Position numbers and translations under genes: made by a program. Of a DNA stretch of 64,000 bases, positions 869 to 47,906 are shown piece by piece (position 1 is the first letter of the stretch; every line of letters starts with the position of its first letter). The notes beneath the pieces were generated by a model. It was not told where the DNA came from, made no database searches, and saw only the letters and a program-made list of their open reading frames with translations. Source of the stretch: Rubripirellula sp. (GTDB lineage: Bacteria; Planctomycetota; Planctomycetia; Pirellulales; Pirellulaceae); assembly GCA_028823035.1 (NCBI GenBank), contig JAPKCI010000001.1:124001-188000 (forward strand). Direction: 5' to 3'.

Positions 869-1043
869 TTATATCCTCGAAGGGGTTGAGGTTGGATACA
901 GAGGGGGAAAGGAGGAATTCGTTTGATTTACCTGAATTGTAAACAGGGATAGTCAAAAAATGGGGATGGGTCCGCCCGGTTTTCGGCAATTTGCCACTGA
1001 TCGAACCGAGAACCATACCCTGACAAGATGCCCCACCAGCCAG

Positions 1044-2210
1044 TCACAAAGCCAAAATTCTGGTGCAAACATGCTGCATCCTCGGTAAATGGAAGGGTCC
1101 TTTCCACAAGTTACCCTTCAATGTCGAGGTCACGCGGCCGGTACGGTCAAGGTAACCAAACCATTCACCATGCTCGGGATCGGGAAAGTGCTGGTATGCC
1201 CACTGATGAATCTGTTGATGCCAATCGGCATACTTTTGATTCCCCGTGAGCCGATACGCCAGCAACGTGGCAATGATCGCCTCGCACTGGGGCCACCAGA
1301 ATTTCATGTCATGCCAGTACTCCTGTACAGGATGCCCGTGCAAGTCCACGAAATAGAGGATTCCACCATACTCGGCATCCCAACCCCGCTGCCACATCCA
1401 ATCCAGCATTTGGCAACCCATATCGATCAGGGACGAATCTTCTCGGTGAGCCCCTTCCCACATCAAAAACCAGGCACCTTCGATCGCATGCCCCGGGTTC
1501 AGCGTCCGGCCATCAAAATGGTCAATCACCTGTCCCTCAAGGCCCACAGTCTCCATGACACAATTCAGCTCGGGCTTGAGATGAAATCTCTGAATCGTCT
1601 CGATACTCTTATCAATCCAATGATCTGCGTCGTCCAGCCCGATAGAATCCCTCAGCTCCTGTGCCGTGGCGATGGTAATCATCGGAAAACCAATGGATCT
1701 TGTTGGCCGGTGATCGGTGAATTTTGGCGGTGTGTCAACGGGATCGAGATTGTGCTGTAAAAACTGCTGAAAAGCTTTGGAGGCACGGTCGGCGTAGTCC
1801 TGGTTCCCGGTCGCCTTGGCAAGTTCTCCAAAGGCTATCGCGGCAAAACTCTCACTGAATGCATATCTGCGTTTTCGAATGGGGGTGCCATCTCGGGTGA
1901 CATGGAACCACATGCGATGATCGGTAGGATCAAAGCAATGTTCAGTAAGAAACTCTGCTCCGTGACACGCCAGTTCCAGCCACTCATCACGAGCTTCCAG
2001 ATTGTTGTAAAGCTCACCTAGAAGCCACGTGAAACGCCCTTGCTGCCAGACACCCTTATCAGTGTCGATCACATTTCCAGTCTGATCCAGCGCCATCATG
2101 AAACCACCATGCTGACGGTCGACACAATGATCCAGCCAAAAGGGCAGGGTGTCTTCCAGCAAGCCGCCGCGGTAAACCGCGACAAGTTCTTCAGCTGTTA
2201 ACCGGCTCAT
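1044..2210 (-). CDS. N-acylglucosamine 2-epimerase (AGE) family protein
   Basis: A 388-residue protein of the AGE family, an (alpha/alpha)6 barrel. The two histidines expected for this family are visible: H241 in [10 protein letters not shown] and H374 in GPFHLPR near the C-terminus. The length matches the family (about 390-420). The start ATG overlaps the stop of the symporter gene (ATGA, 2207-2210), so the two are translationally coupled. Next to a sialic-acid lyase, the likely reaction is interconversion of N-acetylmannosamine and N-acetylglucosamine in the cytoplasm, as in Bacteroides-type nan operons. AGE relatives such as cellobiose or mannose 2-epimerases look similar, so the substrate is inferred from context. 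Confidence 0.9.
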
Positions 2211-17075: not shown

Positions 17076-18140
17076 ATGATCGATGTGATGGATTTTGCTG
17101 CGGATTTTACCGCCATCGACTTTGAAACAGCGAGTCAACGCCCCGACAGTGCCTGCCAACTAGGTGCTGTGGTCGTGCGGGATGGACAGATGGTGGACCA
17201 GTTGATGTGGATGATCCGTCCTGAACCACTTCATTTCAGCCGAGGCAATATTGGTATCCACGGCATCACGCCTGAGCGGGTCCGCGACGAACCAACCTTC
17301 GGTGAGCTCTGGCCGGACATTGCGGACAAGCTCGGCAACGATTGCTTGGTCGCCCACAACGCAAGTTTTGATATCAAAGTTCTGCTCGCCTGCCTGTGTG
17401 CTCACCGAAAATCGACGCCCGAATTAAACTTCACATGCACGCGAGCGATTGCTCGCCGAACCTGGCCCCATCATCGCCGTTATGGATTGAAACCCCTGTC
17501 GAATTGGCTTGGTATTCGCTTCCAGCACCACGATGCGCTCGAAGACTCCGTCGCCTGCGCAAAGATTCTGCTTGCCGCCGGCATTGATCGCGAAGCCAAG
17601 TCGCTACGCCATCTCGAGCAACGCCTGAAACTGAGTCGCGGCAAAGCTGGCTCTTGGGGCTATCGGGGTCCGTCTGGAAAATCTCCCCGGCGTGCCGCCA
17701 GCGATGGTCCGAAGTCCAAGCAAGAGAGTCAAACTCAAGGATTACCATTTCTTTTTCCTAATCAGGTCGCCGACCGACAGAACACCTACTTGGCGGTAAC
17801 CGAACCTGCAGAACAAATCGACTTGCAGCGACTTCTTGTTCGCGCCGAATTCATTCGCCCATTGCGTGGAAAAAAAATCGTCTTGGCTGGACATCTGAAG
17901 TGCATGAGCCGCGACGATGCCGAGAATCTGGCCACGCGACTGGGGGGAACCTGTCAGAAAATGGTCGATGAAGGAACCGACTATCTAGTAATTCGTTCTG
18001 CCTCAAAAACGTCTGCTACCGCTGATCAGTGTGACGACGAACGGCGGGCCCAGTCATTTAAGAAAATCGGCAATCCGATCAAAATCGTGGATGAAAGTGA
18101 ATTTTTAGGCTTGGTAATCACACCTAATAGCGATTCATGA
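17076..18140 (+). CDS. DnaQ-like 3'-5' exonuclease with C-terminal BRCT domain
   Basis: A 354-residue protein. Residues 10-175 are a DEDDh exonuclease: D15 and E17 in IDFETAS, D99 in HNASFD, H152 and D157 in HHDALED. This is the fold of the DNA polymerase III epsilon subunit. Residues about 260-345 are a BRCT domain (LRGKKIVLAGHLKCMSRDDAENLATRLGG, here split: LRGKKIVLAG and EGTDYLVI), as in NAD-dependent ligases. The pair suggests a repair or proofreading exonuclease rather than the replicative subunit. ATG at 17076 and 17088 are both possible starts; the AAAGGAG at 17046-17052 is distant from both. Confidence 0.85.
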   Translation: MIDVMDFAADFTAIDFETASQRPDSACQLGAVVVRDGQMVDQLMWMIRPEPLHFSRGNIGIHGITPERVRDEPTFGELWPDIADKLGNDCLVAHNASFDIKVLLACLCAHRKSTPELNFTCTRAIARRTWPHHRRYGLKPLSNWLGIRFQHHDALEDSVACAKILLAAGIDREAKSLRHLEQRLKLSRGKAGSWGYRGPSGKSPRRAASDGPKSKQESQTQGLPFLFPNQVADRQNTYLAVTEPAEQIDLQRLLVRAEFIRPLRGKKIVLAGHLKCMSRDDAENLATRLGGTCQKMVDEGTDYLVIRSASKTSATADQCDDERRAQSFKKIGNPIKIVDESEFLGLVITPNSDS

Positions 18141-21840: not shown

Positions 21841-22911
21841 CTAATTCCCTGCTGCGCGGCGTTGGGCGGCCCGCTGCGCCTCTAGAACCGTGTCCTCCAG
21901 TACCGAACCACCGGAACCACGTCGTGGCAAATTTCTGTCGGGAACCAGTGGCGGGACAGCCCCGGCATTCCGCTGACGCACCGCCGCGCTATAGACCCCG
22001 ATCACACCTGACTGAAGCATCGGTCCTGGAGGAAGAAAGAAACGCCCTATCCCTCGACCCTGAAAATTGATGTCTTCAATCACATTGGGACTCTTCCCGG
22101 TTCGATCAATGGAAACCGATTGCATCGCCCACTCATGAACCACGAACTCATAGCGTATCGCTGGCTGAATCTCGGTGATAATCTCACGAGTCACCGCATA
22201 TCCTGAGGGTGTTATCACTCGATAGTGTGCAATTCGTTTTCCACCCGAATCACGTGCCAATTCAATTTTTGCTGTTGAGCCAGGCTGAATCCGCAACGCC
22301 CGACTTGCTGTGGAATTTTCGAGATCCTGAATACCGACTTGCAACTCTCGCCTGCCGTCGTTGAGCAGTTCTAACTTTGCGGGTGGGATGGATGCGTTTG
22401 GAATCATCGTTGTGCCGAGCAGGATGGACTGCGGGCGTGGCCACAAGAGAGGTGGACCCAACATGAAAACATTTGCCTGGGGACCAATCAACTGGCCAGG
22501 AAAGATTGGAACACTTGCCAGCAAAGGCGTCCCGGCTTGTCCACCTCGAGGCCGCACTGCGGGTCGGGAACGAACTGCGCGACGGGTGTTACGGAATCGA
22601 GGTTGCGGGTCTCTCAAACTCGCAGTTTGCATCACACCCGTACCCGAGCGAGGAAACCGCAGCGCCCGATCGACTGCGTGACTGAAGTAACCAATAAATC
22701 GTCCATCGGCCGAATCATATTGTGCATCACGGCTAAAATAGACTCGTTGACCTGTCTGACCATGAACCAGCAGCCGCCCCCATCCAAGTTGTGCCGTTGC
22801 CGTTACCTGCCCTGTCGGCTCAACGAGGTCAAAGTCCTGTTGCCCTCTGGCGGTGGCAACTGGCAACATAGAGATCAGCACTCCGATACCGAACTGCATT
22901 GCTCTTTTCAT
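21841..22911 (-). CDS. Exported Pro/Arg-rich protein of unknown function
   Basis: A 356-residue protein from the ATG at 22911 (a GTG at 22917 is in frame); GGGG lies about eight bases upstream. MKRAMQFGIGVLISMLPVATARG is a signal peptide. The next part (WGRLLVHGQTGQRVYFSRD) describes a small beta domain; residues about 100-140 are Arg/Pro rich. About 190-290 is a beta-rich region (LELLNDGRRELQVGIQDL, RYEFVVHEWAM), and the tail is low complexity (Arg/Ala). No catalytic motif. It is 193 bases downstream of the 2110-residue gene on the same strand. Confidence 0.7.
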   Translation of the reverse strand: MKRAMQFGIGVLISMLPVATARGQQDFDLVEPTGQVTATAQLGWGRLLVHGQTGQRVYFSRDAQYDSADGRFIGYFSHAVDRALRFPRSGTGVMQTASLRDPQPRFRNTRRAVRSRPAVRPRGGQAGTPLLASVPIFPGQLIGPQANVFMLGPPLLWPRPQSILLGTTMIPNASIPPAKLELLNDGRRELQVGIQDLENSTASRALRIQPGSTAKIELARDSGGKRIAHYRVITPSGYAVTREIITEIQPAIRYEFVVHEWAMQSVSIDRTGKSPNVIEDINFQGRGIGRFFLPPGPMLQSGVIGVYSAAVRQRNAGAVPPLVPDRNLPRRGSGGSVLEDTVLEAQRAAQRRAAGN

Positions 22912-23104
22912 TATCACGGCCCCAAAACAAAACGATCATCACACCCATTCGAACACGGACACCGGTCCTGAAGAGTCCGCTGCTGATTATAGGAGTCGTG
23001 ACCTCCGAAAGCACGAAAAATCGCTTCAATTCTGGCAAGGGTACAGATGCGCTCAGCCGGCTCGACAAAAACTTGCGCCGATGATGCAAGGACTGCTGCA
23101 ACGA

Positions 23105-26100
23105 TTACTGATTCGGCGCGGCAACATCATGCACGGTCGCACCCTTCTCATCACTGATCACGAGGATCGCGAATCGGCTTGCTCCTTGAGCATCAGCTGC
23201 ACTGATACTGGCATAATCAAAGCGACCTCGCGAATCGGTATATCCATCTTTAAAGAACTTAATCTGGCCGTTGGAATACTTGCCATACACTTTGACATAA
23301 GCCGATGGGATGGGCCGATGGGACTCTGAATCTGTAGTTTGAAGTTGTCCAAAACCCTCTGAAACGTACGTCGTAATATCACCTCCATAGTACAGTGCAG
23401 TCGATCGGGCTGCACCTGCGACAACTTCAATCAGGAGCGTTTGTCGCTGCTGATTTTCATCGAGCTCCATGCGTCCTACACCTGTCGCCGACTCAAATTT
23501 CAGGGAATCACTTCGCATCGGTTCAACCATCGCCATCCGCTGTAGATCATCCCTCACAAACGGTGCTTTACTGAACAGTAACTCGAGGTCGACACCATAG
23601 AAATTGACCACTGCTTCCTTTGATCTGCGATGATCAATTCTCAGTGTGTTGCCTTCGACACGAACCACGACTTCAGGTTGCTGTTCGGATGCGCTCGCTT
23701 GCTGTAATTCACGGTCCATCACGGCAAGATCACCTGAACCCTCGGGAATTGGTTCATGTCCTTTTCCAGCATCGACAGCTACGAGTTGCTCTGTCCGAGC
23801 CAGATTTTTCCGCTGTTTCAGTTGGGCAGCCAATTGCGAAAACCTGCCTCGCCAACGAGGGATCTGATCCTCAGCATGCTGAACTGCAATCTGCTCGGCC
23901 TTGTCGTAGTTACCCTCATGCATCGCAAGATATGCTGACAAGTAATCGTACTGCAAACGTGTATTAATCTTTGCCGGGTCTACCAGTCCGAAAGTATCGA
24001 TTGCTTCCGTGATGCGATTCTGGATCAGAAGGTAATACGTCATTACGAGCCACTGTTTATCTTCAATGCGTGAGGAGAACCCGAGTGTTCTGGAAAACTG
24101 TTCGTATTGTGCCCGGAAGGTCGAATTCAGAATCTCGTCTTGTTCACCCAAGCGATGAATACGTGCACGAACCAGAGGAGAATACTCGAGCAATTCGTGC
24201 ATCCGGCGTTCAATGGGTTCGACTCGCAGGAGACTACTATCAAGTACCGGCCCGACGCGGGAGCACAGATCTTTCCGCGTCGACAAGTAGATCTGCATTG
24301 CTGCTTCGTCGCGATGAGCAAATCCATAAGCCCAAAGCAGCGGAACTGAAAGTCTCTCGTCACCAAGTACAGCTGTCACGACTTCGTAAAAAGCTGGGTC
24401 TTTCATACGGTGGGCGATAAGCGACCAATCAAGGCCACGCAAGTTCGCCTCAGCCAGAAACTCTTTTACCGCAGTCGGTTCGCCATTAGCCGCGATGTTC
24501 TCCCATGTGACCTCGTTATCCTCACTGAATTCGGAGACAACGTTAAATTGCCGGACCTCACCACGTGCCAACAGCTTGCCATCAACACCAACGGTAGCTG
24601 GATAGTGCGAAAATTCTCCGGCCTCAGGGAAATAAAACTGATAGGAAATTGCCTGTACCGCAAACGGTTTTAATTTAATAGTTCGACTGTCAGTCAATCT
24701 ATTTTTGGCGAGCGGCAGGCTACCTGCAGGCAATTGCCAGAAGACCTCCACCGTGCGCTCTGCCATGTTCGGGTTGGAAACGACAATGTGCCCCTGGTAA
24801 CCGGCGCCGGCCAGAAACTCTATCGGCTCAGTTGGGTTTTCCTTGCCTTGATCGCCACCCGCGGAACTCATTTTTTCAAATCGCTGCCCAAGCAGGATAT
24901 TTGCGGGTACATCTTCGAACTCAAGTTCCTGGAGTTGCTTGGTAACAACAGCAACGGCGTGTTCTGGTTGATATGCCTGTTCCGGTTCGGTGGGCAGATT
25001 CACGTTCCCCGCGGTCAACGGCAACCCGCACAATGCCAACGCCGCGAGCGCATCATGACGGCTGCCTATGGGTCGCAACAGATTGTCTGACACACCCAGT
25101 TCGTCCACATCCATGCTGGCGAGATCATTCCAGAACGGACCTGCTTTGATCAGATCCGTCGGGCTTGGACCACCCACCGTACGGACATGATCCCACTGAC
25201 CTTCGGCCCACTGCTTGGTTGCATCGAGTTTTCGGAAGAACGCAGCAGCGCCGCCGCCCAGTTGGTCGCCTGCTACGCGACCACGATATAGTTGCCTATT
25301 ACTCAGGCCTGCCGGTGCGTTACTCTGCGGAGGAGCTGCAGCCTTGCCCTTTTCAACTTCTTTACGTAGCGCCCTTCTGCGACCAGCAATGGTTTCGCCG
25401 TCGATGTCTCCTAATCTGCCGTCAGATACGCCAAGCCGTTGCTGTCCCTCGCGATCACGTGAAAGCGAGTTTTTGTCCATCGTAGCGTTCAAACGATTGG
25501 CTTTCAAAGCACTCTCAATACCTATGCGAAGCGCTTCATAGTTTTCATCCTGTCGATCCACCGTTTCCTGCAATTGACGCTGCACCGTCTTACGCATGGC
25601 AGGAACATGCATGGCAAGCAAAGTTCGTTCGGCCGCATTCAGTTGGTTGTACTCCCACAATCTGGTATACGGAGTCAGGTCTTGATCTAACAACCAATGA
25701 TCAATGAATTGCTTTTCTTTCTTATTCTCCAGATAGGGTTTCACCACCTGATCGAAGAAACCGCGATCATGGAATCGCAGAAAGAGGTGAAGTTCGTGGC
25801 TTGCCAAGCGGGAATACGCATCCAGCTTTGCGTCTTGGTCGAGGGCATGCCACACTCCCAACTCATCGAAATCATTCAGTCTGGGATCAGCAACCAGCGT
25901 CTTGTAAAGATTCATCAACTGTGCAACAGAACCGTAAACTTGCAACTGTGCCGAGCCAAGGCTCGTTAGATCAAGTGGTTGGTCAGGACCAGCGATCAGC
26001 ACCCCGCGTTTAAAGGTGTAAGGAACCGCTGCATCAAGAGACTTGGCTAATCGCAGGTCAACCGTTTCTGCTGGATTCGCTTTTACGGTAATCATCCGCT

Positions 26101-29100
26101 GCACGATGACCGCAGGGTCACAAGCCACGACCTGAAGGATGGGAAGGTCTTTGATCAGATCACTGTCGACCAACACGACGCCATTGGCATCCGGAATCAG
26201 GTTCGGCAATACAATCCCTGAATCGGCAAGGAAATCGTAGTCCGAACCCACTGCCGCCCTCTGCCCCTCCTCCTTGGCACGTTTATCAAATTGCGCTGCA
26301 TCCATCATCTCTTGTGCTGAGGCTGGCGGTGGTGCACCGGGACGAACCGACTGACTGGCATTCGAGGTTTCCTCGGTTTCCCATGGGTTCAGCAAGATTC
26401 CTGGTTGGGGCAACATCACCCCGGGATATTTTTTGGCATACCTTCTGCGAAGCACGTACTGGTACTCATCACCCAACCGCAAGTCACTGACGTATCCTGA
26501 CTTTGGCAGGTAAACACGCCGACCGAGCAGACTCGGAATTGGCAGTTCCAATTCTCCGATGGGTGAATTACTTTCGACGTATCGTGAAGCGTACAAATGC
26601 ACACGTGCCAACTGCGTTTTCCCAGATAATTGAATTCGCAAGCCTTCGGGAACTTCACGAATCGATGCGATACCCAGCGGTTGCCTCAATGACATTTGCC
26701 GATGACGGGTCTCCCCAATTGCCACCGCATCAATTACTGGGCCTGCGATGACAGCAATATTGACAATCTTTGCGGTCGCCCGATCAATCAGGTGATAATC
26801 GCCCGCAGGAAGCTTCCGAATTCGAAGCAGGCCATTCTTACCCACCATGCGGTCTGATCGATCTGTACCGTATGCTCCTCCGCGCACCTCGATTAACCGA
26901 TACCGCTCAACGACATCTTCCACCGTCTCGGCCAATGGGAGTTCAATCTCGCGATCTACAGTCGTATGCAACTCGTCAGCCCAACGAACTGCGTTCCGGT
27001 CCAGATTGCGCTGATGCAGAAGCCCGGAAGCTACTGAGAAGCGAACCGAGTTGACACCCTTGAGTGCCCCCAGTCGGACTCGTCCCTGATCATCCGATTG
27101 CAGCGTCTGGTCAACGGTGCTATTGCGGAAATCAGTACTCAATGAAACCGTCAAACTGGCACTTGAAACCAACTCGCCATTACGTCCACGCACCTCGATG
27201 ATGTAGTCCTCACCATCGCGGGTGAGAAAAGAATCATGTGTGAAATTGGTCTGACGTATACCGGCCACATCCCAAGTCCGTGACACGTTCAGCGACTGCT
27301 GCTGTCCATCAGCCACTTTCGTGATCGATCCATTCAACGTCACTGTTAGCTTTGACAACCTCGCTGGCACTCTGATAGGGACAACCAATTCACGATCTTG
27401 CGTGAACTGCAGATCCTCCAGCTCATGATTCATGACAATTCCATCAAGATCTGTCGCGGCCACTTGCACGGAAACATCCGTCATTGTCCGCGGGGCAATG
27501 GGGGTGGTCCCCAGCATTAATTGGGGTCGGATCAGCACTTCTGTTTGACCACCACTCTGAAGCATCGAACGATCCAGATGCATGCCTGCTGACAGGCGAT
27601 ACTGTTCTTGCAGGTGAGAAAACTTCACTGCTGCGGCGATAGATCCATCGCTAATGACTGCACGTCGGGAAACCTGATCAACAACTGGCGGCAGTGTGAC
27701 ACGGCCAGCGTCGTCGGCAATGAATTCTCTGGAACCAACCCACATCGTCGCAGTCGGGATCGGCTGACGGTTCTCGTCGATGATCGTGAAAACCATCCCA
27801 TCCGCGCTGGACGAATGCACGTGATCTATTCTGCCCCGCCGAATCAGAGCACGAGCCCGGAGACCTTTGCCCACAAGATCAACAACCCAAACTCCGCGCC
27901 CCATGATCTCAGGCAGTGCCAATTCTTCATTGTGACGGATAACGGCCGCCTGATTGAAGGTAAGCTTTCTTTCGTGACTGGCAATCAATCCATCGAGATC
28001 AATATCCGTATCAATCGGCTTTTGATGATTCCGGTAATACGATGGTGTATTGATCTCATACATCCGGATCACTATTTCCGGGATATTCTTGATCTCGACT
28101 TTCAACCGCGTAACATTCGCGTCATCAAAATAACTGGGGTTATCAACCGACAGTCGCAATTCCACCTGATCACGGATCCGCTGTCGTTCCGTCGCGTTCA
28201 GCATCTTGTACCACTGTTCTTCTGAGCCAACACCCCGCATCAGCTTGGTCTCTGCAAATACGCGCCGCAAATAATCGGGCTTCAAATATTTGGCGAAAGC
28301 ATCTGCCTTAACTTCGTCTTCGAGAAAGTACTCCAAATAGGCACGCACAACCGGTTCCTCATTTCCCACCGGTGGCAACATCGCACGGTCCATGAAGTCT
28401 TCGTTCAGGTTGGCTCTCGCTCCCCCACCCTTTAACAAGTCCGCATGAACGATGGGACTGACCCTTGGAAGCCGTAGATAACGGTCAAACAGATCGCGAT
28501 CATAGATACCGTTCTGCAAATTCGCCTTCAGCAACCGATGCGCAGCCGACGCTTGCATACCAGCGTAACTTCTGGGCAATGTCCGAACGTATGACTCGAT
28601 TCGTATGAGATAATCTGTTTGAACATCTAATTGCTGAGCGGCATCCTGATCACCATTGGGCCGCAGTCTCTGCAACATCGCTGAAACAAAGTTATTGTCG
28701 GCTGCAACCTTGGGGACTTCCCTGGCAACTTTTTGAAGCTCCTTCAACGTCAGAAATTGATGAGCTTTGAGATCACCGAATGCCTGTTCATTCGGGGGAC
28801 GGCTTTTGATTTCCATGATCACCAAGTCACCCAGATTGTCGATATAGGCACCCTCAACCCGGCCTAAAAGTTCCCGCAATTTGATACTGAAACCAGCTGT
28901 TTTCTCTTCCAAAAACCTGTTCGCCAGGTAACGCAATCCGGGTGGCTTGATACCATCGCGACGTTGCAACGCCTCTTTCAAAAGGCGGTCTACCGACAAC
29001 ACCGATGCATCCAGATCACTGGGAAAACGCCGCTCGTTTCTGGTTGCAGGAGGTGCGTGCTTCAGTTGGACACCCAATCGCCGAACCAGATAGTCGATGG

Positions 29101-29437
29101 ACCGTTGCGGCGATAATTCATAGCCGAGTAAACGCTGACGGTCAGTCATCGCAATGATGGCTGGTGTCTCTCTTCCGTTATGCGATGCAAGCCACTCTCT
29201 GAGGATTGCTTCGCTTCGCTCCAACTGGCCAGTCGTTTGCAACAACAGACAATGGTAGAAGTAGTAGTCATCACTGCCTGGGATCAGTTCGGCAAGCATT
29301 GCCTCTCGATCATTCGACAAGGCATAGCGTTCCATCCAACTGACCGGCTCAGCCTTGACTGGACGCACACCGATTAGCATCGCCAAAAAAAGCAGCGAGA
29401 AGGAAACCCGGCAGGCTGACTGACAAAGCATGGACAT
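23105..29437 (-). CDS. Giant secreted multidomain protein, partly alpha-2-macroglobulin-like (2110 residues)
   Basis: A signal peptide (1-29) is followed by a helical, TPR-like region to about 420. At about 430-480 is a block with EIKNIPEIVIRMYEINTPS, then Ig/macroglobulin-like beta modules (GVWVVDLVGKGLRARALI at about 510, and others to about 1000). A Pro/Ala-rich spacer is near 1030-1060. A second beta part at about 1540-1650 (GHIVVSNPNMAERTVEV) is followed by helices. At the C-terminus, about 2015-2100, is another macroglobulin-like module (TTYVSEGFGQLQ, GYTDSRGRFDYASIS). No CxEQ thioester motif is visible. It probably works outside the cytoplasm, possibly as a protease-interacting or envelope protein. 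No partner such as a penicillin-binding protein lies beside it. Confidence 0.8.
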   Translation of the reverse strand: MSMLCQSACRVSFSLLFLAMLIGVRPVKAEPVSWMERYALSNDREAMLAELIPGSDDYYFYHCLLLQTTGQLERSEAILREWLASHNGRETPAIIAMTDRQRLLGYELSPQRSIDYLVRRLGVQLKHAPPATRNERRFPSDLDASVLSVDRLLKEALQRRDGIKPPGLRYLANRFLEEKTAGFSIKLRELLGRVEGAYIDNLGDLVIMEIKSRPPNEQAFGDLKAHQFLTLKELQKVAREVPKVAADNNFVSAMLQRLRPNGDQDAAQQLDVQTDYLIRIESYVRTLPRSYAGMQASAAHRLLKANLQNGIYDRDLFDRYLRLPRVSPIVHADLLKGGGARANLNEDFMDRAMLPPVGNEEPVVRAYLEYFLEDEVKADAFAKYLKPDYLRRVFAETKLMRGVGSEEQWYKMLNATERQRIRDQVELRLSVDNPSYFDDANVTRLKVEIKNIPEIVIRMYEINTPSYYRNHQKPIDTDIDLDGLIASHERKLTFNQAAVIRHNEELALPEIMGRGVWVVDLVGKGLRARALIRRGRIDHVHSSSADGMVFTIIDENRQPIPTATMWVGSREFIADDAGRVTLPPVVDQVSRRAVISDGSIAAAVKFSHLQEQYRLSAGMHLDRSMLQSGGQTEVLIRPQLMLGTTPIAPRTMTDVSVQVAATDLDGIVMNHELEDLQFTQDRELVVPIRVPARLSKLTVTLNGSITKVADGQQQSLNVSRTWDVAGIRQTNFTHDSFLTRDGEDYIIEVRGRNGELVSSASLTVSLSTDFRNSTVDQTLQSDDQGRVRLGALKGVNSVRFSVASGLLHQRNLDRNAVRWADELHTTVDREIELPLAETVEDVVERYRLIEVRGGAYGTDRSDRMVGKNGLLRIRKLPAGDYHLIDRATAKIVNIAVIAGPVIDAVAIGETRHRQMSLRQPLGIASIREVPEGLRIQLSGKTQLARVHLYASRYVESNSPIGELELPIPSLLGRRVYLPKSGYVSDLRLGDEYQYVLRRRYAKKYPGVMLPQPGILLNPWETEETSNASQSVRPGAPPPASAQEMMDAAQFDKRAKEEGQRAAVGSDYDFLADSGIVLPNLIPDANGVVLVDSDLIKDLPILQVVACDPAVIVQRMITVKANPAETVDLRLAKSLDAAVPYTFKRGVLIAGPDQPLDLTSLGSAQLQVYGSVAQLMNLYKTLVADPRLNDFDELGVWHALDQDAKLDAYSRLASHELHLFLRFHDRGFFDQVVKPYLENKKEKQFIDHWLLDQDLTPYTRLWEYNQLNAAERTLLAMHVPAMRKTVQRQLQETVDRQDENYEALRIGIESALKANRLNATMDKNSLSRDREGQQRLGVSDGRLGDIDGETIAGRRRALRKEVEKGKAAAPPQSNAPAGLSNRQLYRGRVAGDQLGGGAAAFFRKLDATKQWAEGQWDHVRTVGGPSPTDLIKAGPFWNDLASMDVDELGVSDNLLRPIGSRHDALAALALCGLPLTAGNVNLPTEPEQAYQPEHAVAVVTKQLQELEFEDVPANILLGQRFEKMSSAGGDQGKENPTEPIEFLAGAGYQGHIVVSNPNMAERTVEVFWQLPAGSLPLAKNRLTDSRTIKLKPFAVQAISYQFYFPEAGEFSHYPATVGVDGKLLARGEVRQFNVVSEFSEDNEVTWENIAANGEPTAVKEFLAEANLRGLDWSLIAHRMKDPAFYEVVTAVLGDERLSVPLLWAYGFAHRDEAAMQIYLSTRKDLCSRVGPVLDSSLLRVEPIERRMHELLEYSPLVRARIHRLGEQDEILNSTFRAQYEQFSRTLGFSSRIEDKQWLVMTYYLLIQNRITEAIDTFGLVDPAKINTRLQYDYLSAYLAMHEGNYDKAEQIAVQHAEDQIPRWRGRFSQLAAQLKQRKNLARTEQLVAVDAGKGHEPIPEGSGDLAVMDRELQQASASEQQPEVVVRVEGNTLRIDHRRSKEAVVNFYGVDLELLFSKAPFVRDDLQRMAMVEPMRSDSLKFESATGVGRMELDENQQRQTLLIEVVAGAARSTALYYGGDITTYVSEGFGQLQTTDSESHRPIPSAYVKVYGKYSNGQIKFFKDGYTDSRGRFDYASISAADAQGASRFAILVISDEKGATVHDVAAPNQ

Positions 29438-40282: not shown

Positions 40283-40419
40283 AACGGATCGTGAAACCGC
40301 AGTCTTGCGGGACGGGCAAATCCACCTTTACCCCGGAGAGTTCGTACCGCTACTGTCTTGAGTGAGACTGAGCGTCACCACTGTGCGCTCTCGATTGTCG
40401 CATACTCCCAAGTTCGTTG

Positions 40420-43400
40420 ATGGCTGGACACGGAAGTCTTTGCCCAAAGATTACACGCTCAAGCTCGCCTGTCTTGGCGACGGGATGGAAGTACGCTACC
40501 GCGTTGTTGCCTTGCTCTGCGTTGTTACCTTGCGCTGCGTTGTTACTATGCTCCGCGTTGTTGTCTTGCTCCGCGTTGTTGCTGCCGGTTCGTGATTCCG
40601 CCGCTGCAGATCCGACCATCAATCTACAGGCATCACAAGACGATGCGGTCGATGTCGGGTTTGATTTCAGCTGGAACGCAAAAGAGCCCCAGTTTTGTCA
40701 TTTGCGAATACGGTTGGTCGATGAATCAAGCGCAAGCCGGTGTGTCATTCGTGACCTCGAGAATCTTTCAGAATCTGACCAAACGGTTGCCGCGTTCTCG
40801 TTGAATCAAGACGCAACCCAACTGACCTTCCACCCTCGCGCTCAGGTTGATTCTGCGGTTATACGCTTTCGTGTTCAAGGCACACGGAATTCGCGAATTA
40901 TCATCGAAATCCTCGACGATCCACGTACCCGAACAGGGTCCCCCATCGCTCAACCTGTTCGCGAAATTGCGCTCACGGATCTCCTGCAGGTTGAGTCGTT
41001 TCACTCCGAAACAACTTTCTCAACCACCCACACCGCCGAACAACAGCCAAGCTGGTCGATCCGCCGCGTCGAAAACGACGAAATCCGCTTGTCAGGCTTG
41101 CCAGCGGTGCCGGTATACACCCCCGGCGAAGAGTTGAATTTAGCGGCAGTCGTTAACGCAATGATGCGGCATGCCTCTACAGCATTAACGCTGCAGTACT
41201 CGATTGTTCAGGTCAGTAATGACGAAACCGTCGTGCTGCACCGGCACCCCATCCGAATTAATTCGAACGGCAACAGTGACCCAATTCGAATCACCGAGGT
41301 GGCGCCGGATACGCCAGGAGTTTACGAACTACGCTGCCAGGTATCAGAGGTCGAAGATCGCATATGGGATCGGTTGCGACGTCGTGAGCCTCCGTTGCTC
41401 AGGATCGGGCGACCATTTTTCGTCGTGCCGGAACAAGGGATTACCATCTCACCGACCGCGAACCCCTGGAAAACAGCAGGAACGCTGCGACCTTCGGAAT
41501 CCAACTGGTCGGTTGGACAATGGTTACCCAAAACAACGACACGATTCATCCCCGGAGTCAATTCACAAAGTCTGGAGTCTGAGCTTGAAAGAGCTCAGCA
41601 TGATGAAGAAACAGTGTCACTGCTGCAGCCTCAAAAAACTTTCCAAGCTACCCTTCCCATTCTCACCGCCGGCTTGCCACACAAAATCACGATCCGTTTG
41701 CCGGCAACACAGAACGTCCAACTTCGGTTCGAGGTCGGAGGACTAACTGACCGCGATCATCCAGCTACCAGATTCACCCTTGCCGATACAAAGACAACCA
41801 ACTTGGGCGAGCAATGGCGCACGCATACCTTCGTACACTACCCGGTAGATGATGATCAAATCTGGCTAACCAACCTTAGTAACGAAGTGGTGCAACTGGA
41901 GTCGATTCAGGTCGAATCCGGACCACAACACTTGGTTCAAACACGCCCCGATCTGAACAGCAGTGGCGAAACAGCAAGTTCGTCACAGCGAAACACCATC
42001 CTGCAACTTGGCAGTATCGATTGGGTCGATTCTCTCTCTACCGATGTTTCAAAACGTTACCGATTAGACGAATGTGATGCTACTACCATCGCGATGGTCA
42101 AATTGTGGGTGGCTCTCGACCGAGCCTGCGACCTGGCTCACACGAATGGGATGAACGGTATCATGCTGCCAGCGAATGCCGGAGGCAGAACAATCTTCCA
42201 AACCCGCAGTCTGTTACCCAAAAGCGACTCACAAAAGTCCGAGATCAATCGATTAGCCACCACAATGAAGCTGCTGGTAGGACGCGGACTTGAGACGCAT
42301 GTGAGCCTCGATCCCGATTTCATGCTCTCACCAATCGAGCAGGCACTCCGAGAACGACCTGCCCTGATAAATTCGCTGACAAGAACTCATCTGGACAAAC
42401 CCAACCAGTACAACCTGCTGCAACCGCTCGTTCAGGCAAGCCTGCAGGAATTACTCGCTGAACTACGATTCCAATGTAGTCAGTGGGATCATTTTGCTGG
42501 AATCACCGTCGACTGTGGTTCTGAAAGCCATTTACAACCACTTACAAGGATTTTCGATGATACGGCAACACTGACCGCGTTCGCGCAATCGCTCAATGTG
42601 GTGGTAGATCTGGAACAACTGCGTGCATGGACCCGTGGGGACGGAAAACTTAACTACGAGAACTGGGTTCGGGAAGAAACCGATCGGTGTTATCGTGCGC
42701 TGCAGAACGTCGATGAACCGTCTCTTTTGGTCTTGAAACTGGAACAACCGACCAACGGCGGTGCTAACACCGAACCCCGGGCAAACGCGATTCCAGAATT
42801 CAAGTCAAACGGAGATTCCCAGCTAATCGCCGGACGTTCCCTGGGATACACAAATTCGCCATTGCTGCTAAGGAAACCACTGCTGCTTTCGCACCTGAAC
42901 TCGGCAGAAAATGACGCCGCCGAAGGTGCAGTATTCTTCAACACTGAATTACAAACCGACAGTGAACCAGTAGTCCATGGAGGTCCGCTGTTCCTCGAAG
43001 ATACTTGTCGCCTCATCGATCACCTCAACCCATCCCACCTGGTGATTTCCATGCCATTGGATGGTCGTATTCTGCGACCCAATCTTGACCAATTGCTGAG
43101 AACATTCCAGTCCATGCCCGAGGCAAGCACGCAACCAGTCGGCTCACACAGCAAAGCCCAGAATGCCGTACGACTGCGGAGTGTTCAACACGATGGTTTT
43201 CTACACCTGTATTGCATGTGCCTCACGCCATGGGCCAACGAAATCGACATCGAAACCACAGCACCCATCCAATGGCAAGCAGTCGGCGTTGATCCTGAAG
43301 CAATCGAACTCAAGCAAGTGACTGCCACCCGAACACGGGTGCGGATCCCCGAACGGCAACTGATCCTGTTGCGGTCGACCCAACCCGTCGGTGATGCCAA

Positions 43401-44232
43401 AATCGTATCGTGGAAGACGCGTCTCAGTGGCGGACCTGCCGCTTTGGCAGAAATCAAACGCAAAGTCACCGTGATCGCAGAACGGATTGGAATTCTGTTC
43501 GACTTCCAATCGTATGACGCCCTCAACAACGGTGGATTTGAAAATGCTGGCGGCTTGGGGCTGGTGGGTTGGTTGCACGCGCAGCACCCAGATGGCTGCG
43601 TACGCGTCGATGACACACAAGCCCTGGAAGGTAAGCACTCCATCCGGCTGACGACAGATACGGGGATGACTGCGAGAACATGGATCATAAGCGAAACTAT
43701 CTCCCCACCCAAATCGGGGCGACTTGCAGTCTCACTTGCCTGCCGTGCGGAAGCTAACCAAGATTCTGGCGTACACCGATTGAAGGTCTCACTCGAAGCC
43801 ATCGAGAATGGAAAACCAATTCGCTTTTCGAATGAATTCGATGTCCCCAAAAATGGCCAATGGGGAAGTCGCGAAGTCATCCTTGAAGCTCTGAATATTG
43901 ATGCTGCCAATATGCACTCTCTCCGCCTCACAATTGACAGCCTTTCGAGCGGACGCATCTGGATTGATGACATCAGGCTTCATGATCAATTCCCCACAGC
44001 ACGCGAACGAGATGAACTGCAAAACGTAGCCTTTCTAGCGGTACAGGGCCTGCAGAAAAGCAACCTGAATCCTGCAGGTCGGCTTTTGCACAATGGATGG
44101 GCGCTGCACTTGTTAAAACTTGATCCGCTGCAGGATCCGGAAGCGGTAACAGAGGCGGCCCCTGCTACCGAGGACACACCTGGGATTGCGGAACGCATCA
44201 AGGACTGGATACCCAGATCGTTGCGTTTCTGA
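40420..44232 (+). CDS. Large secreted protein, glycosidase-like with carbohydrate-binding-like tail (1270 residues)
   Basis: The ATG at 40420 follows an in-frame TTG. Residues about 26-58 form a hydrophobic leader made of a repeated Leu-Leu-x-Cys-Ser-Ala motif. Its hydrophobicity and the following VRDSAAADPT suggest a signal peptide. The middle part at about 540-700 (WVALDRACDLAHTNGMNGIML, GLETHVSLDPDFMLSP) has the feel of a TIM-barrel glycoside hydrolase of the GHL10 type. About 1030-1190 resembles a CBM4/9-like jelly roll (NGGFENAG, WIDDIRLHD). No catalytic residues can be named. The next gene begins 29 bases after it. Confidence 0.75.
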   Translation: MAGHGSLCPKITRSSSPVLATGWKYATALLPCSALLPCAALLLCSALLSCSALLLPVRDSAAADPTINLQASQDDAVDVGFDFSWNAKEPQFCHLRIRLVDESSASRCVIRDLENLSESDQTVAAFSLNQDATQLTFHPRAQVDSAVIRFRVQGTRNSRIIIEILDDPRTRTGSPIAQPVREIALTDLLQVESFHSETTFSTTHTAEQQPSWSIRRVENDEIRLSGLPAVPVYTPGEELNLAAVVNAMMRHASTALTLQYSIVQVSNDETVVLHRHPIRINSNGNSDPIRITEVAPDTPGVYELRCQVSEVEDRIWDRLRRREPPLLRIGRPFFVVPEQGITISPTANPWKTAGTLRPSESNWSVGQWLPKTTTRFIPGVNSQSLESELERAQHDEETVSLLQPQKTFQATLPILTAGLPHKITIRLPATQNVQLRFEVGGLTDRDHPATRFTLADTKTTNLGEQWRTHTFVHYPVDDDQIWLTNLSNEVVQLESIQVESGPQHLVQTRPDLNSSGETASSSQRNTILQLGSIDWVDSLSTDVSKRYRLDECDATTIAMVKLWVALDRACDLAHTNGMNGIMLPANAGGRTIFQTRSLLPKSDSQKSEINRLATTMKLLVGRGLETHVSLDPDFMLSPIEQALRERPALINSLTRTHLDKPNQYNLLQPLVQASLQELLAELRFQCSQWDHFAGITVDCGSESHLQPLTRIFDDTATLTAFAQSLNVVVDLEQLRAWTRGDGKLNYENWVREETDRCYRALQNVDEPSLLVLKLEQPTNGGANTEPRANAIPEFKSNGDSQLIAGRSLGYTNSPLLLRKPLLLSHLNSAENDAAEGAVFFNTELQTDSEPVVHGGPLFLEDTCRLIDHLNPSHLVISMPLDGRILRPNLDQLLRTFQSMPEASTQPVGSHSKAQNAVRLRSVQHDGFLHLYCMCLTPWANEIDIETTAPIQWQAVGVDPEAIELKQVTATRTRVRIPERQLILLRSTQPVGDAKIVSWKTRLSGGPAALAEIKRKVTVIAERIGILFDFQSYDALNNGGFENAGGLGLVGWLHAQHPDGCVRVDDTQALEGKHSIRLTTDTGMTARTWIISETISPPKSGRLAVSLACRAEANQDSGVHRLKVSLEAIENGKPIRFSNEFDVPKNGQWGSREVILEALNIDAANMHSLRLTIDSLSSGRIWIDDIRLHDQFPTARERDELQNVAFLAVQGLQKSNLNPAGRLLHNGWALHLLKLDPLQDPEAVTEAAPATEDTPGIAERIKDWIPRSLRF
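40500..40586 (+). repeat. Imperfect 18-base tandem repeat, about 4.8 copies, inside a signal-peptide coding region
   Basis: Copies begin at 40500, 40518, 40536, 40554 and (partial) 40572. Consensus CGCGTTGTTGCCTTGCTC; each differs at a few bases. In the gene's frame each copy encodes six residues of the type Ala-Leu-Leu-x-Cys-Ser, giving the hydrophobic core of the leader. Confidence 0.8.
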
Positions 44233-45527: not shown

Positions 45528-47906
45528 TCAAGGTTGCTTAACCAACTGGTACTGCCGCCGCAAATCATCATCGATATTGGATTGTGTCAACAGGACAAAC
45601 CTTGCACGGCGATAAGCTTCCTGATCATCGCCAATTTGTTGCATCAACTTAATAGCCGACAGTTTTGCTTCGTGCCACTGCCGACTACCTTGCGGCAACC
45701 CGGCAGCCAATTCATCCCACAACTGCACACCAGCTTGTTGCGCTTTCTTATCGGGACTAGCCCCCAAGATCGTGGCTGCTTGCCGTGTCGATGCCTGGGG
45801 GTTCGACGATTTCTCTCGCACTGTCCGCAATCGGTCAATTGCCCCTTCAACGTCTCCCTTCCAGAGAGAGCGTTCCGCTGATTCAACCGACACATCGGAA
45901 CTGTCAGTCCAACGTTCCAGGATGGTGGTAACGCGTGACCTGCAGTCGGCGTTCTTGCGAGCATCAGCCATCATCCTCGACTCGACTTGCGTCAGTAACT
46001 CGGGAGGCGGCGTTTCAGTGATCGATTTTCCTTCACGACGGAATGCAATCAGTGAGTCGATAAAAGAATCAGTTGACGACAGATCTGGCCCCTGCTCATT
46101 CAATGCGGTCAAGGCTTTGCGGTCAAGTTGTGTCGCTGAAATCAACCGATACCGGGACCGCATCATGTCATTTTCCAGAAGACTCGCCATCGCAGTTTGA
46201 AATGCATCCGTTGTTTCTTTTCCATTCGCCTTGTCAAGGTCGGCGGCCGATTGCTCGAGAGCCAGCAACCACGCGTCTGCGATCATCTGGGATAGGCCGC
46301 TGTCGATGGTTGCAGGTTCAGCCCTGGAAACAATCTGCGCCGCTTCGAGATACCTTTTCTGGGATTGCAGGATGTTTTGCAGCCACGTGCGAACAGATGT
46401 CGAATTTTTACTGTTGGGCCAACGCTGCAAGTTCTTCTGCAGAATCGCCTCAAGACGCGGAAGAGCATCAGCACCAGAATTGTCCATTCTGGAAATCAAC
46501 ATGGCCGCCTGAAGATGGGTTGCTGCCGCTTGTTTCGCCGTCGGCTTTGCCAGAGAAACATCCCGCAACAGGTCGACAGCATCATCCACTCGCTTAGCTG
46601 CCACTAGCGCAGCAGCGGCTTCGGCAACCCCTTTCATTGCCCGATCAGGATCAGTTTCAACGACGGCGGCGGCGGCAAGCCAGTCACCAGCCCGACCGGG
46701 ATAGCCACGCCGCAACAAATCCTGTCCGAGTGCCACGACCAGGGATGGATCAATTGTCGCCTTCGACTGGCCAGTCGAGTGCAAGTACGAAAGCGAAGCC
46801 GCTTCGGCGCGGCGACGAGCAAACGCTCCGCCTCGACGTTGGATTGCGTCAAGCCAATCACCAACGCCATTACTTGCATTTGTCACCAGCAAAAACTCCA
46901 GCCTCGCCAAGTCCATCTCAAGTGCCTTGGGGGCCGATTCCGGCACATCGCCAAAGAACTCTCTCAGCAGGTCACCTGCTTCCGTCATGCGGCCTTGGGC
47001 GATGCGCAATCGGACTCTGAGAGCCTGTAGTTTGGGTGGCAAGGACTGCTCAAAACGCTGGACTAACTCAACCAACAAAGCGTCGCACCGTTCGAATCGC
47101 GATGCTCGAAAAATCGCTTCCACCCGCAAACGCTCGACCTCTTTTCTCGCCTCGGTTCCCGCAGGCAGACGTGTGATGGCGTCATCGGCTACCTGCTCTG
47201 CCTTGGTCGCCGCTGCAATGCAGTCAGCACTTTCGCGGGCAAACAGATCGGTTTGCACCAAAGCGAGAGACACCAAATTGACTTGTAGTTCCTGCTCAAT
47301 ACGACGCAGATCAGCGATCAGTCCCCGGCTGGATACGGTTCTGTCGGATTCCAATTGGGACCGTCTCTCCTGAACTTCTTTGGACAGACTCTGGACATGA
47401 GTCATCGCGGTCAAAAGACGCCGGGTCGCTAATTCCCGAATTTGATCGTTGCGAGGCGACACCGCTGCACGCAACACGCTGTGAAATGCGTAAAACCGTT
47501 CGCACGTCAGTAACTGCGAATCCAGAAACAGTCGACGTCGATGATCCGGATACGAACGCAATAACTCGCTAACCGGCCGCTGCACCTCCGCCAATTCCAG
47601 ATCTCCAAATGCATCACTACCCATCTGCCGGGCCGTCAGAACCTCCGATTTCCGGATCTCCCATTTGGCTGCTTCATCACTTGAGCGATCGAGGTCAACT
47701 GACTGCCAGCGATAAAAATCCAACGCGTCGTCAAACCGCCCCAGACCAATCAGGGCTCGCAACAGATCCGCATCGCGATCATTAGTCGTTCTCCCGACTA
47801 TTTTCGAGACAGGATTGGCCGCAAGACACCACAATCCATTGCCCCGGCTGTGCGCAAGAAGCAGAACCATGATGACGAGCAACCGTAATGATTCAGATCG
47901 TAACAT
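45528..47906 (-). CDS. Exported TPR-like helical repeat protein
   Basis: A 792-residue protein. MLRSESLRLLVIMVLLLAHS starts a signal peptide. The remainder is helical with repeated pairs of about 34 residues, for instance ALIGLGRFDDALDFYRWQS, ALRVRLRIAQGRMTEAGDLL and QDLLRRGYPGRAGDWLAAAA, as in TPR proteins. No enzymatic motif. It begins three bases after the ExbD gene stops, so it belongs to the ExbD operon and probably acts with that complex in the periplasm. Confidence 0.8.
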   Translation of the reverse strand: MLRSESLRLLVIMVLLLAHSRGNGLWCLAANPVSKIVGRTTNDRDADLLRALIGLGRFDDALDFYRWQSVDLDRSSDEAAKWEIRKSEVLTARQMGSDAFGDLELAEVQRPVSELLRSYPDHRRRLFLDSQLLTCERFYAFHSVLRAAVSPRNDQIRELATRRLLTAMTHVQSLSKEVQERRSQLESDRTVSSRGLIADLRRIEQELQVNLVSLALVQTDLFARESADCIAAATKAEQVADDAITRLPAGTEARKEVERLRVEAIFRASRFERCDALLVELVQRFEQSLPPKLQALRVRLRIAQGRMTEAGDLLREFFGDVPESAPKALEMDLARLEFLLVTNASNGVGDWLDAIQRRGGAFARRRAEAASLSYLHSTGQSKATIDPSLVVALGQDLLRRGYPGRAGDWLAAAAVVETDPDRAMKGVAEAAAALVAAKRVDDAVDLLRDVSLAKPTAKQAAATHLQAAMLISRMDNSGADALPRLEAILQKNLQRWPNSKNSTSVRTWLQNILQSQKRYLEAAQIVSRAEPATIDSGLSQMIADAWLLALEQSAADLDKANGKETTDAFQTAMASLLENDMMRSRYRLISATQLDRKALTALNEQGPDLSSTDSFIDSLIAFRREGKSITETPPPELLTQVESRMMADARKNADCRSRVTTILERWTDSSDVSVESAERSLWKGDVEGAIDRLRTVREKSSNPQASTRQAATILGASPDKKAQQAGVQLWDELAAGLPQGSRQWHEAKLSAIKLMQQIGDDQEAYRRARFVLLTQSNIDDDLRRQYQLVKQP

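What the first reader, a model, noticed from the sequence alone, without database searches (positions are those of the whole stretch)
23105..29437. A 2110-residue secreted protein with macroglobulin-like modules but no thioester
The protein has macroglobulin/Ig-like blocks in the middle and at the very C-terminus, and long helical parts between them. The order and the lack of CxEQ differ from bacterial alpha-2-macroglobulins. Blocks such as MYEINTPS and GYTDSRGRFDY look strongly conserved; from memory they resemble blocks in large uncharacterised proteins of diverse microbes.
Basis: partly seen in the sequence, partly recalled or inferred. Interest (0 to 1): 0.6.

Follow-up and report, generated by a model that had tools for sequence, protein, structure and literature searches.

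The report
Bacterial CAGE protein, macroglobulin-related
This very large secreted planctomycete protein looks like a bacterial member of the recently described CAGE family, whose protist relatives form hollow megadalton cages of unknown function, and its sequence ties that family to bacterial alpha-2-macroglobulins, the proteins that trap proteases.

Summary
The frame is real: 23105-29437 (-), 2110 aa, signal-like N-terminus, no Pfam or NCBIfam match, no CxEQ. Full-length relatives occur in Planctomycetota and in the phylum of a Kiritimatiellia genome. Length, order and sizes of the helical and beta blocks in two AlphaFold2 models match CAGE1 of a 2025 preprint (PMC12485934): a hollow homotetramer of about 1 MDa, role unknown, bacterial homologues mostly in Planctomycetota and Verrucomicrobiota. 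CAGE sequences were not held here, so none was aligned. New here: profiles show homology to 2.4-2.8 kaa TPR-containing bacterial macroglobulins (residues 415-789 against 509-893, E 4.6e-11; 1830-2073 against 2284-2533, E 1.3e-11; reversed control 0.46). Both kinds carry an NIE-MG1 module before the MG array and again at the C-terminus. A hypervariable loop of nearly fixed length sits where a bait region would be (inferred). No neighbour is shared at a fixed place beyond close relatives, and relatives lost the gene alone. Best reading: subunit of a periplasmic cage, kin of thioester-poor macroglobulins; trap function about 0.3, inferred.

The parts
23105..29437 (-). whole gene, 2110 aa, bacterial CAGE-like protein
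   Evidence: ORF; full-length homologues
29351..29437 (-). residues 1-29, signal-peptide-like N-terminus (inferred)
   Evidence: sequence by eye; hydrophobic core in 44 of 47 members
28169..29341 (-). residues 33-423, helical domains (CAGE1 domains 1-2)
   Evidence: AlphaFold2 model
27602..28186 (-). residues 418-612, NIE-MG1 module, first copy (CAGE1 domains 3-4)
   Evidence: direct profile hit on own-genome A2M frame
28040..28063 (-). residues 459-466, MYEINTPS block in the first NIE module
26516..27625 (-). residues 605-974, further MG-like beta modules (CAGE1 domains 5-8)
   Evidence: profile homology extends to residue 789
26249..26365 (-). residues 1025-1063, hypervariable loop A of nearly fixed length, bait-like position (inferred)
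   Evidence: (pLDDT under 50)
26087..26218 (-). residues 1074-1117, beta strands after loop A (CAGE1 domain 8, second part)
25034..26017 (-). residues 1141-1468, two strands and a helical domain (CAGE1 domains 10-11)
25244..25486 (-). residues 1318-1398, hypervariable loop B of variable length inside the helical domain
24536..24955 (-). residues 1495-1634, Ig-like/MG-like beta domain (CAGE1 domain 12)
23684..24505 (-). residues 1645-1918, helical domains (CAGE1 domains 13-14); part of the second is TPR-like by profile
23120..23674 (-). residues 1922-2106, NIE-MG1 module, second copy (CAGE1 domain 15)
23213..23245 (-). residues 2065-2075, GYTDSRGRFDY block, most conserved stretch of the family together with 1201-1250

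Best explanation
The gene encodes a bacterial CAGE protein: a 2110-residue exported subunit that most likely assembles into a hollow homotetrameric shell in the periplasm. CAGE and the TPR-containing bacterial macroglobulins are descendants of one ancestor that already had helical repeats, an NIE-MG1-MG array and a second NIE-MG1 module at its C-terminus. CAGE lacks the thioester motif and shows no recognisable thioester domain. Its flexible, hypervariable loop A sits before an MG-type strand block, where macroglobulins carry the bait region. The mechanism I commit to: the cage is a non-covalent, macroglobulin-like trap or container; an intruding protease cuts an exposed loop, the shell rearranges, and the enzyme is shut in the cavity away from large substrates. 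Shown here: frame, family, domain order, MG fold of both zones, profile homology to TPR-macroglobulins, lack of CxEQ, loops, loss of the gene alone. Inferred: membership in CAGE (0.9, by architecture and the published description, not by direct alignment), common descent with A2M (0.85), tetramer and periplasmic site (from the preprint and the signal-like N-terminus), trap mechanism (0.3). The confidence given is for identity and descent together.
For: Architecture of two AlphaFold2 models (mean pLDDT 78.6 and 70.9) against the CAGE1 domain table in PMC12485934: same order of blocks, with ours against CAGE1 d12 140/133, d13 84/83, d14 147/133, d15 185/202 residues, disordered inserts in the same two places. 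Taxonomic spread: strong matches (E 1.2e-65 or better) in 41 of 199 Planctomycetota genomes and 25 of 240 genomes of the Kiritimatiellia genome's phylum (E 1.6e-65 or better). Foldseek on residues 28-1175: the 50 listed rows (of 129 with E <= 0.001) are complement C3/C4/C5, membrane-attack-complex, A2M, A2ML1, CD109, TEP1 or cobra venom factor entries. VIA: Salmonella and E. coli A2M Z 12.0-13.5. Second NIE-MG1 at the C-terminus, Z 13.0. Profile-profile homology to 24 TPR-macroglobulins, E 1.3e-11 and 4.6e-11 for collinear stretches. Reciprocal: the C-terminal profile of 6 TPR-macroglobulins hits six CAGE frames, E 7.0e-8 to 4.7e-4. The module tree puts CAGE-N with TPR-A2M-N and CAGE-C with TPR-A2M-C, 99/97. 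Loop A: 39-45 residues in 44 of 47 members, mean conservation of window 1035-1064 0.25 against 0.49 overall; TPR-macroglobulins have their least conserved window just before MG7.
Against: No CAGE1 or AbpF sequence was held; PDB sequence searches found none, so membership is not shown by alignment. The AU test does not reject the alternative tree with both CAGE modules together (p 0.33), and a first quick tree with two bad rows left in gave the N|C split only 42. Between residues 790 and 1830 profile homology is not significant (best E 0.0046 in part of it). Foldseek global TM-scores are low (0.07-0.17). Domain 12 also matches TRAP, dextranase and transglutaminase Ig-like domains at similar Z. 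Low conservation is not special to loop A: loop B, the linker 1878-1907 and the signal region are as variable, and loop A is not enriched in K/R (0.117 against 0.123 overall). The C-terminal model has pTM 0.42. The preprint saw no cargo in the cavity and in eukaryotes the protein is cytosolic or ciliary, which fits a protease trap poorly.
Confidence: 0.8

Rival explanations
1. A passive container or chaperone: the periplasmic cage holds or folds proteins or stores a small molecule; the MG modules are only building blocks and the loops only spacers.
For: The preprint proposes chaperone or container roles and reports cross-links to several proteins inside and outside the cage (PMC12485934). The cage is also intracellular in eukaryotes. 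No enzymatic motif was seen. Loop A is not enriched in K/R.
Against: Kinship with macroglobulins and a hypervariable loop in bait-like position favour a reaction to proteases, but do not show it. The gene is dispensable: lost alone in relatives, unlike a general chaperone.
Confidence: 0.4
2. A structural or adhesive cell-surface protein built of Ig-like and helical modules, not a closed cage in planctomycetes.
For: Large exported Ig-rich proteins are common in planctomycetes (general knowledge); Foldseek also lists multi-domain glycoside hydrolases with Ig-like modules for the C-terminal half.
Against: Conservation runs through the whole length with 74 positions at 98% or more in 47 rows and a fixed block order; block sizes match CAGE1, which is solved as a closed tetramer in two protists (PMC12485934).
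Confidence: 0.08
3. CAGE and macroglobulins share MG modules through domain shuffling or convergence, not a common two-module ancestor.
For: The AU test does not reject the two CAGE modules as each other's closest kin (p 0.33); NIE-MG1 of both ends of CAGE match each other weakly (E 6.4e-4 over 63 columns, reversed 0.27); no significant homology between residues 790 and 1830.
Against: Two collinear profile matches spanning 375 and about 245 residues with the flanking helical repeat included in the second; N with N and C with C in the tree at 99/97.
Confidence: 0.15

Closest known systems
CAGE complex (CAGE1-3 of Tetrahymena, AbpF of Dictyostelium; PMC12485934, bioRxiv 2025.09.22.677704)
   Same: About 2,100-2,200 residues; helical, beta array, split beta/helical, beta, helical, helical, beta order; no Pfam domain; Ig-like modules whose best PDB matches include A2M; bacterial members in Planctomycetota and Verrucomicrobiota with signal peptides.
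   Different: Exported rather than cytosolic/ciliary. This report adds profile homology to TPR-macroglobulins, a second NIE-MG1 at the C-terminus and bait-like loop A, which I did not see in the parts of the preprint that I read (parts 1-5 of 7 plus passages).
Bacterial alpha-2-macroglobulin of E. coli / Salmonella (ECAM 4zjh, 4zjg, 4rtd; SaA2M 4u48)
   Same: NIE-MG1 module (Z 9.8 and 13.0), tandem MG array aligned in order over residues 424-1122 (Z 13.5, rmsd 14.0 A, so modules are differently arranged in space).
   Different: No CxEQ, no A2M/MG2/BRD Pfam match, extra helical domains, second NIE-MG1 at the C-terminus; ECAM is monomeric and membrane-anchored (PMC4498604, passages; monomer recalled).
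TPR-containing bacterial macroglobulins of Planctomycetota (2.4-2.8 kaa; Pfam TPR, bMG3, MG2, A2M_BRD, A2M, bMG10)
   Same: Helical repeats then NIE-MG1-MG array; hypervariable loop before MG7; TPR then NIE-MG1 at the C-terminus; CxEQ in the thioester domain rare.
   Different: They keep recognisable MG2, A2M_BRD and A2M (MG7) domains and are about 500-700 residues longer.

Membership tests
CAGE family | Order and rough size of helical and beta domains as in CAGE1 | tested here: met
   against the domain table read
CAGE family | No known Pfam domain; Ig-like modules with A2M among best structural matches | tested here: met
   (0 families for the query at E <= 5). Across 20 members one search lists weak hits only, best CarboxypepD_reg 8.6e-6 in 6 of 20
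CAGE family | Bacterial members exported, mostly in Planctomycetota and Verrucomicrobiota | tested here: met
   other phyla were not searched
CAGE family | Sequence homology to Tetrahymena CAGE1 / Dictyostelium AbpF | not testable with these tools
   no eukaryotic collection; no such chain found in the PDB sequence copy
CAGE family | Hollow D2 homotetramer of about 1 MDa | not testable with these tools
   needs biochemistry and cryo-EM
Alpha-2-macroglobulin family | Tandem MG-domain array including NIE-MG1 | tested here: met
Alpha-2-macroglobulin family | Thioester motif CxEQ | tested here: not met
   0 of 47 distinct sequences
Alpha-2-macroglobulin family | Pfam A2M (PF00207), MG2, A2M_BRD matches | tested here: not met
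   query; none among the 9 families listed for 20 members at E <= 0.1
Alpha-2-macroglobulin family | Bait region | tested here: inconclusive
   hypervariable loop A in like position; no cleavage data; profile match there not significant (1018-1105 against 1278-1359, E 0.027)
Alpha-2-macroglobulin family | Thioester domain (helical toroid) with CUB | tested here: inconclusive
   helical domain 11 has no significant profile match to the TPR-macroglobulins; not folded on its own

The most novel reading that the evidence does not exclude
The CAGE family is a thioester-less macroglobulin lineage that turned a monomer-type MG array into a closed tetrameric trap: loop A (and perhaps loop B) is a bait region, cleavage of which closes or re-shapes the shell around a protease. 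CAGE would then be the missing link between bacterial macroglobulins and a eukaryotic intracellular cage.
Probability: 0.28. Interest if true: 0.8.

Novelty: new member of a known kind. Interest (0 to 1): 0.58.

Why it matters
The CAGE complex is a newly described, widespread megadalton shell with no known role. A bacterial member with sequence homology to macroglobulins turns an open question into tests: is it a protease trap, are loops A and B bait regions, and did eukaryotes acquire CAGE from exported bacterial macroglobulin relatives or the reverse. It also gives culturable bacterial models (a Rhodopirellula baltica strain has a member, L013).

Tried and rejected
Rejected: ordinary thioester A2M (no CxEQ, no A2M Pfam). 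Operon-based function: gene order is shared by 8 of 13 loci, all close relatives, and absent in the other 5; among 25 wider loci, 11 clusters of non-overlapping ORFs occur in 3 or more loci, ten of them in 3 loci and one in 6 at scattered places on both strands (which repeats without ORFs that overlap the CAGE gene). The adjacent secreted gene 21841-22917 is kept in two relatives that lost the CAGE gene and is found beside only 5 of those 8.

Led nowhere: PDB by sequence (none at E <= 5; ten antibody chains, E 0.68 or worse). Domain 11 as a remnant thioester domain: no significant match. Domain 12 as MG7 or as the C-terminal MG domain: the two weak profile matches tie (E 0.029 and 0.030) and the structural matches include both and unrelated Ig folds. 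Viral and PADLOC libraries were not searched. Literature: searches; no other paper on CAGE or on TPR-macroglobulins was listed; searches returned nothing. Subscription papers are not held.

Rows dropped: L162 (frame picked by length was presumably a shadow frame: 2708 against 2575 aa reported) and L103 (long branch) left out of the second tree; the tree used 31 of 47 CAGE members and 24 of 25 TPR-macroglobulins. L162 was also left out. L022 (the window's own gene) removed as duplicate of the query from then on.
Full report
Observation. The gene at 23105-29437 (-) is one open frame of 2110 aa in a 7.4 Mb genome. It has no Pfam or NCBIfam match at E <= 5, no PDB match by sequence and no CxEQ. 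Of 60 genomes searched with it, its own included, 29 match at E <= 0.001; one of these, G011, holds only a broken remnant. Within the genus, of 21 other genomes, 14 carry the gene, one the remnant, and six have no match, four of them at least 98% complete. Named records range from Rubripirellula and Rhodopirellula to a Phycisphaerae and a Kiritimatiellia genome. With a 20-member profile of residues 425-1000, 50 of 199 Planctomycetota genomes match (own included), 41 of them strongly (E 1.2e-65 or better) and 9 only weakly; in the phylum of the Kiritimatiellia genome 26 of 240 match, 25 strongly (E 1.6e-65 or better). Other phyla were not searched.

What it is. A search for macroglobulins in planctomycetes led to the CAGE preprint PMC12485934 (I read parts 1-5 of 7 and passages). 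It describes a hollow homotetramer of about 1 MDa made of a 2,216-residue protein in Tetrahymena and of AbpF in Dictyostelium, with bacterial homologues most prevalent in Planctomycetota and Verrucomicrobiota, mostly with signal peptides, and with function unknown. Its 15 domains run: helical 1-2, beta 3-8, split beta 9-10, helical 11 with an insert, beta 12, helical 13 and 14, beta 15. I folded the window protein in two overlapping pieces from alignments of window and the search for related loci sequences (residues 28-1175, pLDDT 78.6, pTM 0.73; residues 1140-2110, pLDDT 70.9, pTM 0.42). Converted to protein numbering the blocks are: helical 33-121 and 144-423, beta 426-974, disordered 975-1063, beta 1074-1117, two strands 1141-1168, helical 1171-1321, disordered 1315-1424, short helices to 1468, beta 1495-1634, helical 1645-1728, helical 1772-1918, beta 1922-2106. 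The order is that of CAGE1, and blocks 12 to 15 are 140, 84, 147 and 185 residues against 133, 83, 133 and 202. I did not align it to a CAGE sequence, as none was held.

Macroglobulin kinship by structure. Foldseek against the PDB with the N-terminal model: 129 matches at E <= 0.001; the 50 listed are complement C3/C4/C5, membrane attack complex, cobra venom factor, A2M, A2ML1, CD109 or TEP1 entries, E 1.3e-11 to 5.9e-8, but with TM-scores of 0.08-0.17, so modules match in series while their arrangement in space differs. The second look ranks Salmonella and E. coli A2M first (Z 12.0-13.5; 4u48 model 397-1095 against 157-1011, rmsd 14.0 A), with E. coli NIE-MG1 on residues 418-607 (Z 9.8), while unrelated rows lie at 7-8. 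For the C-terminal model NIE-MG1 of E. coli A2M comes first on residues 1914-2107 (Z 13.0, rmsd 3.3 A, 180 of 208; Foldseek E 1.3e-6, TM 0.58 by the target). Domain 12 matches C3/C4/C5 MG7 and the E. coli C-terminal MG domain at Z 10-11, but TRAP, dextranase and transglutaminase domains score nearly as well, so which MG domain it is stays open.

Macroglobulin kinship by sequence. The weak hits of the 425-1000 profile are frames of about 1,700-2,800 aa, one of them in the window's own genome (E 2.2e-7). Seven frames that I scanned with Pfam include six with MG2, A2M_BRD and A2M (PF00207), most also with TPR repeats and bMG3; the seventh is the C-terminal TPR part of a gene split by a stop. Fetching more of them gave 25 frames over 2,100 aa, 24 after dropping L162. 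Of these 24, one (L167) has GCLEQT at residue 1672; two others have CLEQ near residue 264-297, which lies in the N-terminal repeat part; a fragment, L117, also has GCVEQT. So the thioester motif is rare, not absent, in that branch. Against the profile of these 24, the 47-member CAGE profile aligns at 1830-2073 with 2284-2533 (E 1.3e-11), 415-789 with 509-893 (E 4.6e-11), and crosswise at 428-571 with 2371-2518 (E 1.9e-6) and 1919-2101 with 519-714 (E 7.5e-6); the reversed profile reaches 0.46 (E-values are for one comparison). Earlier, with 7 such sequences, the module matches already stood at 2e-9 and 1.8e-8 against reversed controls of 0.07 or worse. In the other direction, a profile of six TPR-macroglobulin C-termini hits six CAGE frames at E 7.0e-8 to 4.7e-4. 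The middle of CAGE, residues 790-1830, shows no significant profile match.

History. In a tree of 110 NIE-MG1 modules the first modules of CAGE and of TPR-macroglobulins fall on one side and the second modules on the other (support 99/97). That suggests that the duplication is older than the split. The test of the alternative, both CAGE modules together, does not reject it (lnL 7.0 lower, p 0.33), and a first quick tree that still held two bad rows gave that split 42. Within CAGE the two modules match each other only weakly (E 6.4e-4, reversed 0.27).

Loops. The least conserved 30-residue windows of 47 members are 1324-1353, 1878-1907, 1-30, 1368-1397 and 1035-1064 (0.21-0.25, mean of the protein 0.49). 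Loop A (1025-1063) is unusual in being hypervariable yet 39-45 residues long in 44 of 47 members; loop B (1318-1398) varies from 45 to 134. Loop A is followed by a conserved ...DFL...NLxPDxDGxV strand block that recalls the ...FWxPxVxTDxxGxA start of MG7 after the hypervariable segment of TPR-macroglobulins, which holds the least conserved window of those proteins (0.14). The profile match at this place is not significant (E 0.027), so the bait reading is inference. In E. coli A2M the disordered bait region lies near 923-963 (PMC4498604, passages); the structural alignment ends at residue 1122 here and 1019 there, so the distance from loop to end is about 55 residues in both, a consistency rather than a proof. 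Loop A is not rich in K or R (0.117 against 0.123 overall).

Context. Gene order around the gene is shared by 8 of 13 loci, all of them close relatives. In 25 wider loci no non-overlapping neighbour occurs at a constant place in more than 3. In two near-complete relatives (G006, G009) the flanking genes are intact and the CAGE gene is gone but for a 26-codon relic in G009; in G011 it is in pieces. So the protein acts without an operon partner and is dispensable.

How it most likely works. The protein is exported (signal-like N-terminus), probably into the periplasm. By the preprint it should form a closed tetramer with a large cavity. Its modules and history are those of macroglobulins without the covalent thioester step. 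I commit to a non-covalent trap or container triggered at exposed loops, at about 0.3; a passive container or chaperone is at least as likely (0.4). All steps after export are inferred.

Verdict. The family is already in a preprint, so this is a new member of a known kind, with a new sequence link to bacterial macroglobulins that makes its function testable.

Noticed in passing
G006 (L178), G009 (L179), G011 (L180): Same-genus genomes that lost the CAGE gene between intact flanks (G009 keeps a 26-codon relic) or hold it in pieces; the neighbour 21841-22917 is kept.
   Followed up: yes
G000:C316 (L087) and G000:C31 (L166): The window's genome also carries a TPR-macroglobulin: a frame open at the end of contig C316 and a 920-aa frame with its C-terminal module on C31; they may be two ends of one gene. 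Not joined.
   Followed up: partly
L110-L119, L148-L167: Planctomycetota hold many 2.4-2.8 kaa TPR-A2M-TPR-NIE-MG1 proteins, most without CxEQ; 76 of 199 genomes match their C-terminal profile at E <= 0.001 (some weak ones may be CAGE frames).
   Followed up: partly
L007-type genomes G075, G077, G078, G166, G232: Some genomes carry two CAGE genes, so paralogues occur in bacteria as in Tetrahymena.
   Followed up: no
1044-4813: GlcNAc 2-epimerase next to a fused NANM-kelch and sodium:solute symporter protein (868 aa), a likely sialic-acid uptake pair.
   Followed up: no
40417-44232 and 45528-47906: Frames of 1271 and 792 aa without any Pfam match at E <= 1e-5.
   Followed up: no
17076-18140: RNase T-type exonuclease fused to a BRCT domain.
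   Followed up: no
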